A model generated the notes under the pieces. That model had not been told where the DNA came from. It was given only the letters and a program-made list of their open reading frames with translations, and did no database searches. Below, one piece after another: positions 131 through 6,329 of a stretch of DNA of 6,329 bases. Within the stretch, counting starts at the first letter, position 1; every line of letters starts with the position of its first letter. Made by a program: the position numbers and the translations under genes. Origin of the DNA: Actinomycetota bacterium (GTDB lineage: Bacteria; Actinomycetota; Humimicrobiia; Humimicrobiales; Humimicrobiaceae). The stretch is taken from NCBI GenBank assembly GCA_016783985.1, contig JADHVM010000060.1, positions 1 through 6,329 on the forward strand. The letters are read 5' to 3'.

Positions 131-418
131 AACAGGGAAGAACCTCTTGAAGAAACAGCCGATGACTTGATTGGAAATGATATGCTGCTGAAAAATAGTT
201 CCATATTAAAAAAAGAATTGGGTTTTGAAAACTTCAAGCTCATAGATGCTATGGGTAAACTGACAAAACTTCAGAAAGATATAATCATCTTGAAATTTGT
301 GGAAGATTTTGACTATAAAACCATAGCAAACATTTTCGGGAAAAACCAATCCACAATCAGGGGAATATTATTCAGGGCTATAACAAAACTAAAAAATGAA
401 ATTAAAAATAAAAAATAA
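128..418 (+). pseudogene. Sigma-70 family (ECF-like) sigma factor, C-terminal remnant with region 4
   Basis: The open frame from 128 encodes the back half of a small sigma factor. An acidic linker (EEPLEETADDL) is followed by a region-4 helix-turn-helix. The segment KLTKLQKDIIILKFVEDFDY and the following TIANIFGKNQSTIRGILFRA are the classic sigma-4 pattern that contacts the -35 element. The core-binding and -10-melting region 2, which should precede it, is absent: the frame has stops at 23, 89 and 125, and no other frame resembles region 2. A TTG at 167 could start an 83-residue protein, but there is no ribosome binding site and the product would lack region 2. I read it as a truncated gene. 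Its end overlaps the first possible start of the DUF5667 gene, the usual arrangement of a sigma/anti-sigma pair. An intact short region-4-only regulator is a less likely alternative. Confidence 0.7.
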
Positions 419-2579: not shown

Positions 2580-3728
2580 ATGGGAATAGGTAAATTAGTT
2601 CAACAACCTAACGGATATAAAGCTTTTATTCCAGATAAGTTTCCCCCAAGAGAAAAGATTGTTTTAAATACAAAAACTCAGCAATTACATGCGAAAGCAG
2701 TTCTTATGCTTGGTAAGCTTGATGGAATAACTCAGCTACTTCCTGATCTTGATTTTTTTATTTTAATGTATATAAGAAAGGAAGCTACTAAATCAAGTGA
2801 AATTGAAGGCACAAAAGCAACAATAGTTGATGTTATCAAGACAGAATCTCAAATAGAGTATAGGTATCCAAGAGATGTTGAGAGAATCCTTCATTATATA
2901 CAAGCTATGGAATATGGCCTTAAAAGGCTTGAAACCCTACCTTTATCTTTAAGGTTTATAATGGAAATTCACAAGATGCTGCTTGAAGATACTGCTGATG
3001 CGCCTGGTAAAACTCCTGGAGAATTTAGAAAATCACAAAATTGGATAGGGGGAGGATCTTTAAACACAGCAACTTTCATTCCTCCTACTCCATCAGAAAT
3101 GAATAGATGTCTTGATGATTTTGAAAAATTCTTATATGCAGCAGATGATTATACACCACTAATCAAAGCTGCACTTTTACATGCACAATTTGAAACAATT
3201 CACCCATTTTTGGACGGCAACGGCAGGACTGGGAGACTTATTACTACATTTTATCTCTGTAAATTAGGTATTCTTGAAAGACCTGTTTTATATCTTTCTG
3301 ATTATTTTTTAAAGAACCAACAAGAATATTACAATTCTTTAGCTAAATACCACAGTGTAGATAGTGATATAACTACTTGGTTAGATTTTTTCCTTGATGG
3401 TGTAGCTATAATAGCAAGTGAAGCAATTGAAACCTCAAAGAAAATAAATTCTTTAAGGATAAAAGATTTATTAAAAATTCAGACACTAGGAAAACGTGCA
3501 AAGAATGGAATTATTGTTCTAGAAAAATTATACAATCTACCTATTATTAAAGTAAAAAAAGTTGAAGAATGGACTGGCTTATCGCGGCCACAAGCTAATG
3601 AATTGGTAAAAAAATTTGTTGAGATTGGTGTTCTAGAACAAATAAATAAAAAAGTTGAGTATGATCGGGAATTTTGGTATAAAAAATACATGGATTTATT
3701 TATCAGTAAAGAAGAGTCTAAATACTAG
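2580..3728 (+). CDS. Fic-domain protein, class II, with C-terminal winged helix (predicted AMP-transferase)
   Basis: This 382-residue cytoplasmic protein should move AMP (or another nucleotide phosphate) onto a target hydroxyl. An N-terminal Fic_N region (about 10-95) carries the inhibitory motif S72-x-x-x-E76-G77 inside SSEIEGTKAT. In class II Fic proteins this glutamate blocks ATP positioning. The Fic core follows: PGEFRKSQNWIG (146-157), the target-docking flap TFIPPTP (165-171), and the full active site HPFLDGNGRTGR (208-219) with catalytic H208 and phosphate-binding N214/R216/R219. The C-terminal part (about 309-370) looks like a winged helix; WTGLSRPQANELVKKF is a likely recognition region. 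All key residues are present, so the enzyme is probably active and self-inhibited. The start fits the family N-terminus but lacks a ribosome binding site. No partner antitoxin is adjacent. The stop codon directly touches the convergent tRNA gene. Confidence 0.92.
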   Translation: MGIGKLVQQPNGYKAFIPDKFPPREKIVLNTKTQQLHAKAVLMLGKLDGITQLLPDLDFFILMYIRKEATKSSEIEGTKATIVDVIKTESQIEYRYPRDVERILHYIQAMEYGLKRLETLPLSLRFIMEIHKMLLEDTADAPGKTPGEFRKSQNWIGGGSLNTATFIPPTPSEMNRCLDDFEKFLYAADDYTPLIKAALLHAQFETIHPFLDGNGRTGRLITTFYLCKLGILERPVLYLSDYFLKNQQEYYNSLAKYHSVDSDITTWLDFFLDGVAIIASEAIETSKKINSLRIKDLLKIQTLGKRAKNGIIVLEKLYNLPIIKVKKVEEWTGLSRPQANELVKKFVEIGVLEQINKKVEYDREFWYKKYMDLFISKEESKY

Positions 3729-3802
3729 TGGCTGGGGAGGGGGGATTCGAACCTCCGCCCTACGGTCCAGAGCCGCATGTCCTACCACTAGACTACTCCC
3801 CA
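3729..3802 (-). tRNA. tRNA-Gln (anticodon CUG), CCA encoded
   Basis: The reverse strand folds as a cloverleaf. Acceptor TGGGGAG pairs with CTCCCCA, followed by discriminator G and an encoded CCA at 3731-3729. The D arm is GTCT-AGTGGTA-GGAC. The anticodon arm is TGCGG, loop CTCTGGA, CCGTA, so the anticodon is CTG, reading CAG (Gln). The variable loop is GGGC, and the T arm is GGAGG-TTCGAAT-CCCCC. The T stem contains one A-C mismatch (third pair, 51-63), which is unusual. The mature 5' end is at 3802. The U1-G start of the acceptor and G73 suit glutamine. Its 3' end meets the fic stop codon with no gap, so its terminator, if any, must lie inside fic on the opposite strand. Confidence 0.93.
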
Positions 3803-4049: not shown

Positions 4050-4241
4050 CTATAATTCCACTCCGCAATTGGGACATTTTTCCATTTTATCTGAAACCGG
4101 ATAGCTGCATTCTGTACAATGGCTGACTTTGAAATTGCAGAAAGAACAATATTCCACTTTGCTGCTCTCCAGCTCCATGTCACAATAAGGGCATCTGCAT
4201 GGTGCTTTTCCACCTTTGCTTTTTGATTCTTTTTTAGTCAT
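4050..4241 (-). CDS. Small double zinc-ribbon protein
   Basis: This is a 63-residue basic protein whose core is two four-cysteine zinc ribbons. Counting from the ATG at 4241, the first uses C17/C20 (CPYC) and C32/C35 (CSFC), the second C42/C45 (CTEC) and C56/C59 (CPNC); one further cysteine is at C15. An upstream in-frame ATG at 4253 would give 67 residues, but GGGAG lies five bases before 4241 and nothing precedes 4253, so I chose 4241. It is the last gene of the cassette, 17 bases after the iscU stop, and is probably co-transcribed and co-translated with it. Zinc ribbons bind metals, nucleic acids or proteins. A link to Fe-S assembly rests on position only, and I do not recognise a named family. 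Confidence 0.75.
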   Translation of the reverse strand: MTKKESKSKGGKAPCRCPYCDMELESSKVEYCSFCNFKVSHCTECSYPVSDKMEKCPNCGVEL

Positions 4242-4246
4242 ATAGA

Positions 4247-4251
4247 CTCCC
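4247..4251 (-). promoter_or_regulatory. Ribosome binding site deciding the zinc-ribbon start
   Basis: GGGAG on the minus strand with a 5-base spacer to the ATG at 4241. It overlaps the alternative upstream ATG (4253), which therefore cannot use it. Confidence 0.65.
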
Positions 4252-4258
4252 ATTTATA

Positions 4259-4642
4259 CTATTTTTTATTTTTTTGTTTTTCCTTGTAATTCTCGATAGC
4301 CCTGTGCAATGCATCTGCGCCCAGATTTGAGCAGTGAAGTTTGTTTTTAGGCAATCCGCCGAGCTCTTTTGCAACATTTTTATTAGAAATTTTTAATGCT
4401 TCGTCCAGGGTTTTCCCTTTAGCCATCTCACTGACCATGCTGGATACTGCAATTGCTGCACCGCATCCGAAAGTCTTAAATTTTACATCATTAATTTTAT
4501 TATCCTTAACTTTTATATAGAAAGTCATCATATCGCCGCAGACAGGGTTTCCGATTTCACCTATGCCGTCTGCATCTTTTATTTCTCCAACATTTCTTGG
4601 AGACATAAAATGCTCCATTACTTTTTTGCTATACATAAACAT
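4259..4642 (-). CDS. iscU: IscU/NifU N-terminal-type Fe-S cluster scaffold protein
   Basis: The protein has 127 residues, the normal length for IscU, and should build [2Fe-2S] or [4Fe-4S] clusters and pass them to target proteins. The opening YSKKVMEHFMSPRNVGEI is typical. The three ligand cysteines are present: C35 in GNPVCGD (with the regulatory aspartate D37), C60 in FGCGAAIA, and C104 in LHCSNLGADAL. The family motif LGGLPKNKLHCS replaces the LPPVK chaperone-docking motif of E. coli IscU, as in NifU-type and archaeal members. AGAGG lies five bases before the ATG at 4642. It sits downstream of the iscS-like gene, 109 bases away, with its own possible promoter in the gap. All residues needed for a working scaffold are visible, in contrast to the partner IscS. 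Confidence 0.93.
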   Translation of the reverse strand: MFMYSKKVMEHFMSPRNVGEIKDADGIGEIGNPVCGDMMTFYIKVKDNKINDVKFKTFGCGAAIAVSSMVSEMAKGKTLDEALKISNKNVAKELGGLPKNKLHCSNLGADALHRAIENYKEKQKNKK

Positions 4643-4751: not shown

Positions 4752-5918
4752 CTATTCTTTATATAATGGTGACATTTTCCTCAATCTATCTATAATCGAT
4801 GGAAGAACTGCAAGGACTCTATCTACTTCTTTTAAAGTATTATACTTTCCTAATGAAAATAAAATTGAGCCCTGTGCCATGGTAGGGGACAGGCCCATGG
4901 ACAGCAGAACATGCGAGCTTTTTAGTGCCTGTGAAGTGCAGGAAGACCCGCTGGCTGCAGCAATCCCTTCAAAATTCAACATAAGCAATATTGATTCTCC
5001 CTCAATAAATTCAAAGCTTATATGTACATTTCCAGGGGTTCTCTCGGCTGGATGTCCATTTAATTTAACATTCTTGATTTTATCACTTATTCCTTTAATC
5101 AGATTGTCCCTTAGTCCTGATATATATTTATTATTTTTATCCATTTCATTTTCAGCTATCTCGCATGCCTTACCAAAACCGGCAATAGCCGGGACATTTT
5201 CAGTTCCTGCTCTTCTTCCACTCTCTTGAATACCTCCCAGAAGCAGTGGCTTTATTCTTATTCCTTTTTTTACATATAAAGCGGCAGCTCCTTTTGGACC
5301 ATAAATTTGCTGGGAGGTGAAGCTATATGAGTCTACACCGAGTTTATTAACATCAACCGGTATTATTCCTGCTGCAGCTGCGCCATCGCTGTGAAATAAA
5401 ATATTATTTTCTTTTGTAATATTTGATATTTCTTTTATTCTCTGGATGGTTCCCACCTCATTATTTGCATGCATGATAGATACAAGTGCTGTATCCCTGG
5501 TAATTTTCTTTCTTACATCTTCAGGATTTACAGAACCATATTCATCTGCAGGAACCAGACTTACCTTCCAGCCTTCTTTTTCAAATTCTTTTAAAGGGTT
5601 GATAATTGATAGATGTTCAATACTGGAGGATATTATATGAGTACCTCTGTCCTTATAAGCTCTGGCCAGTCCCCAAAGGGCAAAATTATTTGATTCTGTA
5701 CCGCAGGATGTAAAGTATATTTCTTCTTTATTTGCACCAATAAGACTGGCTGCCTGTGCCCTTGCCTTGCCCAGAGCTTTTCTTACCATATCTCCAAAAT
5801 CATGAAGACTTGAGGGATTACCATACTTTTTTTTAAAATATGGTTTCATCTCTTCAAAAACTCTATCATCAACTCTTGTAGTAGAAGCATTATCAAAGAA
5901 AATTTTTTCTTTACTCAT
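4752..5918 (-). CDS. IscS/NifS-like cysteine desulfurase homologue lacking the PLP-binding lysine
   Basis: The 388-residue product has normal length and fold type I layout: FFDNASTT (7-14), GNPSSLH (33-39), CGTESNN (72-78), EH (101-102; PLP-stacking H102), HANNEVG (150-156), HSDGA (176-180; D178 for the pyridine nitrogen), RRAGTENV (235-242) and the cysteine loop GSSCTS (324-329; C327). In active desulfurases the Schiff-base lysine lies in S-x-H-K-x-x-GPKG; here the segment reads SFTSQQIYGPKG, with Q203 and Q204 for His and Lys. The residue equal to E. coli Gln183 is A181. The codons are clean (CAG CAA) with no frameshift. A standard PLP aldimine is therefore impossible, though C327 could still bind a cluster or persulfide. 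From memory, Archaeoglobus fulgidus IscS also lacks this lysine. The start at 5918 has no strong ribosome binding site. Confidence 0.9.
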   Translation of the reverse strand: MSKEKIFFDNASTTRVDDRVFEEMKPYFKKKYGNPSSLHDFGDMVRKALGKARAQAASLIGANKEEIYFTSCGTESNNFALWGLARAYKDRGTHIISSSIEHLSIINPLKEFEKEGWKVSLVPADEYGSVNPEDVRKKITRDTALVSIMHANNEVGTIQRIKEISNITKENNILFHSDGAAAAGIIPVDVNKLGVDSYSFTSQQIYGPKGAAALYVKKGIRIKPLLLGGIQESGRRAGTENVPAIAGFGKACEIAENEMDKNNKYISGLRDNLIKGISDKIKNVKLNGHPAERTPGNVHISFEFIEGESILLMLNFEGIAAASGSSCTSQALKSSHVLLSMGLSPTMAQGSILFSLGKYNTLKEVDRVLAVLPSIIDRLRKMSPLYKE

Positions 5919-6100: not shown

Positions 6101-6329
6101 ATGACTAAGAAGATGTATAGTTTCAGGTTAAATAAAGACTTAGTTGATAATGCAAAAAAAATTGCTGAAAATATGGATATATCATTATCGTTATTTATCA
6201 GCTGTCTGATAAAAGAAAAAATAAGTAATTTAAAATCTGGAAATAATGATAAAAGTTTTTTTATATCTAACGAGCTTACTCCCCAAATCTTACGTGAAAT
6301 AGTTTCAGAGATAAAAGAATTAAGGACGG
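6101..6329 (+). CDS. Ribbon-helix-helix DNA-binding protein (CopG/Arc type), partial at window end
   Basis: Seventy-six codons are visible and the frame is still open at the last base. Residues 4-10 (KMYSFRL) fit the DNA-contacting beta strand. Helix A follows (DLVDNAKKIAENM, 13-25), then a turn (DIS) and helix B (SLSLFISCLIKEKI), the standard ribbon-helix-helix dimer fold. A polar linker and a further helical segment (TPQILREIVSEIKEL) come next, as in antitoxins whose C-terminus binds a toxin, or in mobilization accessory proteins. I chose the ATG at 6101 because it begins just before the beta strand; M5 at 6113 is an alternative. Neither has a ribosome binding site of its own. It is divergent from iscS, with 182 bp between. 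A toxin gene might lie beyond the window. Its role is inferred from the fold only. Confidence 0.65.
   Translation, partial: MTKKMYSFRLNKDLVDNAKKIAENMDISLSLFISCLIKEKISNLKSGNNDKSFFISNELTPQILREIVSEIKELRT

What the first reader, a model, noticed from the sequence alone, without database searches (positions are those of the whole stretch)
5296..5313. IscS homologue without the PLP-anchoring lysine
The S-x-H-K-x-x-GPKG segment reads TSQQIYGPKG: Q203 and Q204 replace the conserved His and Lys. The E. coli Gln183 equivalent is also lost (A181), while H102, N152/N153, D178 and loop cysteine C327 stay. The ORF is full length and otherwise well conserved, so it is under selection and not a pseudogene. 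The likely meaning is an IscS that no longer makes sulfur from cysteine but still partners IscU, perhaps with C327 as a cluster ligand and sulfide as sulfur source. From memory, A. fulgidus IscS (Asp at this position) is a precedent in archaea.
Basis: partly seen in the sequence, partly recalled or inferred. Interest (0 to 1): 0.8.

Follow-up and report, generated by a model that had tools for sequence, protein, structure and literature searches.

The report
IscS without desulfurase residues, beside TusA
A protein that normally strips sulfur from the amino acid cysteine has lost the residues needed to do so, yet is kept next to its iron-sulfur partner IscU and, in most relatives examined, next to sulfur-carrier genes, which suggests that these microbes feed their iron-sulfur cluster machinery with sulfur from another source.

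Summary
All 137 aligned rows of its clade (Humimicrobiaceae-type Actinomycetota where named) are QQ, with Cys327, His102 and Asp178 invariant. Lys-less proteins of Chloroflexota and of Archaeoglobus-type archaea show the same combined loss, and the A. fulgidus member is reported to lack desulfurase activity (PMC7585200). New here is the setting: of 33 Lys-less loci with room, 28 have iscU and 29 have tusA just downstream, often with a zinc ribbon and dsrE; of 122 Lys-bearing loci none has tusA, dsrE or the zinc ribbon. The window is one of four Lys-less loci without adjacent tusA; its nearest held relative has tusA-dsrE elsewhere and no SufBD hit. One Chloroflexota genome held as one contig shows the Lys-less protein as its only IscS/SufS-type gene. 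Best reading: a non-desulfurase IscS that docks IscU, with Cys327 handling sulfur brought by TusA/DsrE or as sulfide. Activity is not measured.

The parts
4752..5918 (-). Lys-less IscS/NifS-type protein, 388 aa (called IscS* here)
   Evidence: ORF; PF00266 265.5 bits, best NCBIfam TIGR03402 501.9 bits, below its cut-off 530.75; AlphaFold2 mean pLDDT 91.6 and Foldseek matches to NFS1, A. fulgidus IscS and E. coli IscS
5307..5312 (-). codons Q203 (CAG) and Q204 (CAA) in place of His205 and the PLP lysine Lys206 of E. coli IscS
5376..5378 (-). codon A181, in place of E. coli Gln183
   Evidence: A 132, S 4, G 1 of 137; Q in 116 of 116 Lys-bearing
4860..4862 (-). codon L353, in place of E. coli Arg354
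   Evidence: L 126, S 11 of 137; R in 116 of 116 Lys-bearing
4938..4940 (-). codon C327, equivalent of the persulfide cysteine Cys328, on a low-confidence loop
   Evidence: 137 of 137 Cys; residues 326-331 pLDDT under 50
5703..5705 (-). codon C72, a clade-specific cysteine two residues before the equivalent of Thr76
   Evidence: Cys in 132 of 137 QQ rows, 3 of 116 Lys-bearing rows; closeness of Thr76 to the PLP phosphate is recalled
4259..4642 (-). IscU/NifU-type scaffold with the equivalents of Cys37, Asp39, Cys63, Lys103, His105 and Cys106
   Evidence: PF01592 169 bits; TIGR03419 204.4 bits, above cut-off 187.9; residues
4050..4253 (-). 67-aa zinc-ribbon protein, third gene of the cluster
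   Evidence: PF13240 27.1 bits over cut-off 25; PF12773 double zinc ribbon 24.9 bits, under cut-off 27.3; homologue near 19 of 33 Lys-less loci, 0 of 122 Lys-bearing loci

Best explanation
The protein is a former cysteine desulfurase that has given up PLP/cysteine chemistry but is kept as a partner of IscU. Shown by sequence: loss of the PLP lysine, its neighbour His205, Gln183 and Arg354; an otherwise intact predicted fold; invariant loop Cys327; frequent linkage (28 of 33 loci) to a diverged IscU and, in relatives, to TusA (29 of 33), DsrE and a zinc ribbon. Inferred: TusA (loaded by DsrE, by a rhodanese, or by the cell's separate Lys-bearing IscS) docks on this protein and passes sulfane sulfur to Cys327 or straight to IscU; Cys327 on its mobile loop then acts as sulfur relay and/or temporary cluster ligand while IscU builds the cluster. 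TusA would thus run in the direction opposite to E. coli, where it takes sulfur from IscS.
For: Combined loss of K206 and R354: 136 of 136 Lys-bearing rows with a readable column 354 keep R (one more is cut there) and 37 of 37 Lys-less rows lack it; the same in 120 of 120 listed Chloroflexota-type proteins and in 119 of 119 listed A. fulgidus relatives, leaving aside one that matches the engineered D199K chain (lists capped at 120). In E. coli IscS, changes at H104, D180, Q183, K206 and C328 abolish activity (PMC9978102 passages). Neighbourhood, 33 Lys-less loci with at least 1.2 kb of 3' room: IscU 28, TusA 29, DsrE 15, zinc ribbon 19; 122 Lys-bearing loci: IscU 71, others 0. Four of the 33 (L014, L017, L220, L222) have TusA but no IscU. 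The partner IscU is a distinct type (Ec40 Met, 42 Thr, 43 Phe, 69 Val, 74 Ser, 110 Gly in 28-30 of the 31 readable rows) with all ligands kept. G001 has TusA-DsrE on another contig. No SufBD hit in G001 and G016, both 94% complete, and the only stand-alone IscU hit in each lies beside IscS*; the other NifU_N hit in each is inside a frame of about 490 aa, in G001 an MnmA fusion. G339, held as one contig of 1.12 Mb, has IscS* as its only IscS/SufS-type PF00266 match together with IscU, zinc ribbon, a DsrE2-type protein and TusA. Every TusA piece printed that reaches the motif keeps CPxP.
Against: No biochemistry. The neighbourhood association may rest on a single clade, so the loci are not independent, and TusA/DsrE are not beside IscS* in the window or in G001. 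The TusA contacts mapped in E. coli IscS are not specially kept (Ec45 Trp is mostly Glu/Asp here and mostly Arg/Gln in Lys-bearing rows, contacts from PMC2854127 passages). R354K keeps full activity in E. coli IscS, so the weight of Arg354 alone is unproven. M. cuprina TusA and DsrE3A did not react with sulfide, glutathione persulfide or polysulfide, only with tetrathionate (PMC4175335). Archaeal Lys-less genes could not be checked for tusA linkage.
Confidence: 0.55

Rival explanations
1. A. fulgidus-type model: the protein only lends Cys327 as a ligand and docking surface to IscU; free sulfide of the anoxic habitat supplies the sulfur, and TusA/DsrE serve something else such as tRNA or cofactor thiolation.
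For: A. fulgidus IscS has the same combined loss (N198, D199; Ala for Q183; Leu for R354) and is reported to lack activity and to give a Cys ligand (PMC7585200). Sulfide feeds clusters through IscU in E. coli lacking IscS (PMC13015791 abstract). In the window and G001 tusA/dsrE are not beside iscS*.
Against: Does not by itself explain why tusA (29 of 33) and dsrE (15 of 33) follow the Lys-less gene and 0 of 122 Lys-bearing ones.
Confidence: 0.28
2. Regulatory or mixed-dimer role: it pairs with the cell's Lys-bearing IscS or competes for IscU and so controls sulfur flow.
For: A Lys-bearing IscS was found in 16 of 17 Humimicrobiaceae genomes with the QQ protein and an IscS/SufS-type one in 10 of 12 Chloroflexota genomes with IscS*.
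Against: G339 shows no Lys-bearing partner. In G001 and G016 no other stand-alone IscU and no SufBD was found, which fits a core rather than an accessory role.
Confidence: 0.08
3. Still a PLP enzyme, using PLP without a Schiff base or acting on another substrate.
For: His102, Asp178 and Thr239 are invariant in the clade; E. coli K206A still holds some PLP (PMC9978102).
Against: Arg354, Gln183 and His205 are lost together with the lysine; in the Chloroflexota-type list Asn155 is lost too in 98 of 120.
Confidence: 0.05
4. Sequencing error or decaying gene.
For: One divergent locus is broken: in L132 (G004) iscS* is short and iscU is split between two frames.
Against: QQ in 120 of 120 listed homologues from many sources; full-length ORF; dN/dS 0.07.
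Confidence: 0.01

Closest known systems
Archaeoglobus fulgidus IscS2 (PDB 4eb5, 4eb7, 4hvk; D199K mutant 4r5f)
   Same: Type I fold; catalytic Lys and His replaced (N198-D199), Gln183 as Ala, Arg354 as Leu, loop Cys kept; solved as a complex with IscU (PMC7585200 passage). With eight diagnostic columns removed, one clade for all 20 Lys-less rows is not rejected.
   Different: Asn-Asp instead of Gln-Gln; archaeal; 44-46% identical over the model; its gene neighbourhood was not seen here.
Methanosarcina acetivorans IscS1
   Same: Said to lack the essential lysine (PMC7585200 passage).
   Different: Sequence not seen here; the same paper says IscS1 and IscU3 could be non-functional.
E. coli IscS / human NFS1 / NifS cysteine desulfurases
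   Same: Fold, sequence family, loop cysteine, IscU as partner.
   Different: K206, H205, Q183 and R354 lost; NCBIfam equivalog cut-offs for NifS and IscS not reached, though the Lys-bearing L133 protein also misses them.
MIS (MisS-MisU) minimal iron-sulfur system
   Same: Two-gene IscS/IscU homologue pair; seen only through a passage of PMC12442378.
   Different: Whether its authors noted Lys-less members or tusA/dsrE linkage is unknown; their paper is not held.
rhd-tusA-dsrE2 sulfur-trafficking clusters of sulfur oxidisers
   Same: TusA beside DsrE-type proteins as sulfur carriers (PMC4175335 passages).
   Different: There tied to Dsr/Hdr-type oxidation; here tied to IscS*/IscU and a zinc ribbon.

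Membership tests
Cysteine desulfurase (IscS/NifS, PLP-dependent) | type I aminotransferase-V fold and sequence family | tested here: met
   PF00266 265.5 bits; Foldseek TM (by query) 0.92-0.97 in the first 20 rows
Cysteine desulfurase (IscS/NifS, PLP-dependent) | Schiff-base lysine (Ec Lys206) | tested here: not met
   Gln in 137 of 137 clade rows
Cysteine desulfurase (IscS/NifS, PLP-dependent) | PLP/substrate-pocket residues Gln183, His205, Arg354 | tested here: not met
   A/S/G, Q and L/S in 137 rows
Cysteine desulfurase (IscS/NifS, PLP-dependent) | persulfide cysteine on the loop (Ec Cys328) | tested here: met
   137 of 137
Cysteine desulfurase (IscS/NifS, PLP-dependent) | release of sulfur from cysteine | not testable with these tools
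   needs an assay
A. fulgidus-type Lys-less IscS | K206 and R354 both lost, Q183 not Gln, loop Cys kept | tested here: met
A. fulgidus-type Lys-less IscS | common descent with the archaeal proteins | tested here: inconclusive
   quick tree joins the window clade with the archaeal one at SH-aLRT 92; a single clade of all 20 Lys-less rows is not rejected (lnL 47.5 higher, p-AU 0.928); no Lys-bearing archaeal IscS was in the tree
A. fulgidus-type Lys-less IscS | loop Cys ligates a cluster on IscU | not testable with these tools
   needs a structure or spectroscopy
IscU/NifU-type scaffold (partner) | three Cys plus Asp39 and Lys103-x-His105-Cys106 | tested here: met
   TIGR03419 above cut-off

The most novel reading that the evidence does not exclude
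A widespread anaerobic iron-sulfur assembly module, iscS*-iscU-zinc ribbon-tusA-dsrE, in which a catalytically dead IscS is a loading dock: sulfane sulfur from inorganic sources arrives on TusA/DsrE and is handed over Cys327 (perhaps with the clade-specific Cys72) to IscU, so that clusters are built without cysteine as immediate sulfur donor; in lineages such as G339 it would be the cell's only IscS-type machinery.
Probability: 0.35. Interest if true: 0.85.

Novelty: new variant of a known kind. Interest (0 to 1): 0.68.

Why it matters
Where anaerobes take the sulfur of their iron-sulfur clusters from is an open question. A family of IscS proteins that has lost four catalytic-pocket residues, kept across two bacterial phyla and archaea and, in the bacteria, with a recurring set of sulfur-carrier neighbours, gives a concrete and testable alternative to cysteine desulfuration. 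Source names seen for these proteins mostly call them cysteine desulfurases, so sulfur metabolism predicted for uncultured anaerobes may be wrong at this step.

Tried and rejected
Rejected: sequencing error or pseudogene. Rejected: an isolated oddity of one genome. Considered and not settled: one or several origins of the lysine loss. A FastTree of 159 rows gives one clade, support 100, but with the diagnostic columns in; a quick IQ-TREE of 76 rows without eight such columns splits the Lys-less rows in two, yet trees that hold all 20, or the 12 bacterial ones, together score higher and are not rejected. Rows dropped: for the second E. coli row and two long-branch rows (L154_4369, L115_45, L153_187), the engineered chain P0242, archaeal-list proteins of 420 aa or more, and rows 68% or more identical to one already kept; identical genes were counted once, E. 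coli left out, and counts taken only where at least 1.2 kb lay 3' of the gene (155 of 174 genes). Led nowhere: showing the A. fulgidus chain through (crowded out by the 9we* chains); dN/dS against more distant genes; E. coli TusA-contact residues as a predictor. The archaeal gene neighbourhood could not be reached. The statement that I found no report of the tusA/dsrE-IscS* module rests on search listings only (one search returned mostly noise), in an open-licence library; the paper on MIS/SMS is not held.

Full report
1. Observation. The ORF at 4752-5918 on the minus strand encodes 388 residues with TSQQIYGPKG at 201-210; the two glutamines are codons CAG (5312-5310) and CAA (5309-5307). It is an IscS/NifS-type protein by family (PF00266; best NCBIfam model NifS, 501.9 bits, under its cut-off of 530.75) and by predicted fold: AlphaFold2 mean pLDDT 91.6, pTM 0.91, the Cys327 loop (326-331) being the only segment under 50; best solved relatives are NFS1, A. 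fulgidus IscS and E. coli IscS. The gene is followed by iscU (4259-4642) and a 67-residue zinc-ribbon gene (4050-4253), all on the minus strand.

2. Not a quirk. Those with a source name include Actinobacteria, Candidatus Hydromicrobium and Humimicrobiaceae; Candidatus Humimicrobiaceae is a family of Actinomycetota. The window's own assembly is not held; the nearest, G001, shares 80% of the sampled words and has a 99% identical gene. Of 35 genomes of that family, 32 have some match and 17 have the QQ gene among the loci read. Against G016 the gene shows dN 0.094 and dS 1.364.

3. The loss is a set, not one residue. With E. coli IscS as ruler, the clade (137 rows) has Q for H205 and K206 in all, A/S/G for Q183, and L (126) or S (11) for R354; the 116 Lys-bearing rows keep Q183, H205, K206 and R354 without exception. 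The equivalents of His104, Asn155, Asp180, Thr243, Cys328, Ser326 and Ser330 are invariant in the clade. Column by column, 354, 206, 205 and 183 are four of the five most different columns of the protein. In E. coli IscS, H104, D180, Q183, K206 and C328 are each needed for activity, while R354K is tolerated (PMC9978102, passages). So canonical cysteine desulfuration is very unlikely; this is inference, not measurement.

4. A family. In 400 genomes of the phylum of G036, Lys-less genes were read in 13, with Q, A or S at 206; weaker matches were not all read, so this is a lower bound. The A. fulgidus chain 4eb5 has Asn-Asp at these places; among 120 listed relatives (archaea where named) 119 have D and one, matching the engineered D199K chain, has K; none has Arg at 354. 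According to a passage of PMC7585200 A. fulgidus IscS lacks desulfurase activity and gives a cysteine ligand to the cluster on IscU, and M. acetivorans IscS1 also lacks the lysine. I have not seen the original A. fulgidus papers. On a 159-row tree the 35 Lys-less bacterial rows need one change. With eight diagnostic columns removed and archaea added (76 rows), the quick tree split them, but trees with all 20 Lys-less rows together (lnL 47.5 higher, p-AU 0.928), or the 12 bacterial ones (55.4 higher, p-AU 0.955), were better than the free search found and are not rejected. A single old origin is possible, not shown.

5. Neighbourhood, the new finding. In Humimicrobiaceae the QQ gene is followed by iscU in 16 of 17 loci, and in the seventeenth (L132) by an iscU broken into two frames. 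Beyond iscU come, in many of them, the zinc ribbon, tusA (PF01206) and dsrE (PF02635). In Chloroflexota the order iscS*-iscU-zinc ribbon-tusA-dsrE, or with a DsrE2-type protein (PF13686) before tusA, recurs. Counting distinct genes with at least 1.2 kb of 3' room (155 of 174): of 33 Lys-less, IscU 28, TusA 29, DsrE 15, zinc ribbon 19; of 122 Lys-bearing (close relatives, family paralogues, Chloroflexota controls), IscU 71 and none of the other three (Fisher p for TusA 1.8e-27, too small because relatives are not independent). Four Lys-less genes have TusA but no IscU (L014, L017, L220, L222). The four without adjacent TusA are the window, its close copy L116, L221 and L031. G001 nevertheless has tusA-dsrE, 97-98% identical to query sequences of the module, on another contig. 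The IscU beside IscS* is a distinct type with all ligands kept (32 against 74 distinct sequences).

6. Role in the cell. Lys-bearing IscS was found in 16 of 17 genomes with QQ (the exception, G019, is 73% complete); of 20 such paralogue loci read (L133-L152), some at contig ends, one lies beside iscU (L134); of two whose neighbours I annotated, L138 lies beside mnmA and L133 beside an NAD synthase. SufBD was not found in G001 or G016 (94% complete each) and their only stand-alone IscU hit is the one beside IscS*, so IscS*-IscU is probably their main cluster assembly machine; MAG gaps could hide others, and 20 of the 35 family genomes do have a SufBD hit. In 12 Chloroflexota genomes with IscS*, 10 have a Lys-bearing IscS or SufS-type gene as well, while G339 (held as one contig of 1.12 Mb; completeness not told) and G056 (several contigs) show none: their remaining PF00266 matches are a transaminase-type protein each and weak matches of 24.4 bits or less. 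G339 has the whole module and a SufB-type protein. In 10 genomes asked, cysteine synthase was found in 10 (over the cut-off in 9) and a rhodanese domain in 8 (not in G036 and G339), so cysteine can probably be made; the upstream donor of TusA stays open.

7. Mechanism and rivals. Most likely IscS* is a dock and relay: TusA/DsrE-borne sulfur goes over Cys327 to IscU, or Cys327 only holds the nascent cluster while sulfide enters. Sulfide can feed IscU in E. coli without IscS (PMC13015791 abstract and passages), so the simpler A. fulgidus-type model stays a strong rival. E. coli TusA binds IscS away from the IscU site (PMC2854127, passages), but those contacts are not specially conserved here, nor in the Lys-bearing rows, and a studied archaeal TusA/DsrE pair carried thiosulfonate and did not react with persulfide (PMC4175335). 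A clade-specific Cys72 (132 of 137; 3 of 116 Lys-bearing) sits two residues before the Thr76 equivalent and could be a second sulfur-handling residue; this is a guess.

8. Membership and novelty. By a defining feature (Schiff-base lysine) it is not a PLP cysteine desulfurase, though it belongs to that fold family. By residues it resembles A. fulgidus IscS2; common descent is inconclusive. New as far as my searches show: the bacterial breadth, the Arg354 loss as part of a set, and the tusA/dsrE/zinc-ribbon module. The search listings showed no report of the module; the MIS/SMS paper could not be read.

Noticed in passing
L160:5560-7029 (G001 contig 154): A 489-aa protein fuses a NifU_N domain (7-123) to an MnmA-type tRNA thiouridylase (134-486); frames of about 420-510 aa with a NifU_N match occur in several other family genomes, not annotated further.
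   Followed up: partly
L155 (G010) and L156 (G014): IscU resembling the window's (78-82% identical) beside TusA (and zinc ribbon in L156), with no iscS* found on the contig piece: the module seems to exist without IscS*.
   Followed up: no
L132 (G004): iscS* read as 312 aa and iscU split between two frames: a decaying or mis-assembled copy of the module.
   Followed up: no
L031:5986-7170: A second, divergent Lys-less IscS in a Dehalococcoidia genome that also has the usual one (G039); it lacks also the lysine of GPKG (GPQG) and has neither iscU nor tusA found beside it.
   Followed up: partly
window residues C72 and C252 of the 4752-5918 protein: Two further cysteines almost fixed in the clade (132 and 131 of 137) and rare in Lys-bearing rows (3 and 15 of 116).
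   Followed up: no
window 2580-3728: Fic-type protein (PF13784 + PF02661) ending just before a tRNA-Gln (3729-3802, minus strand); an ORF of the same length, 382 aa, lies downstream of the module on the G001 contig.
   Followed up: no
window 167-418 and 396-1238: Sigma-70 region 4 fragment followed by a DUF5667 protein, resembling an ECF sigma factor with a partner gene.
   Followed up: no
window 6101-6328: Start of a small protein with a weak match to RelB/ParD-type antitoxins, cut by the window end.
   Followed up: no
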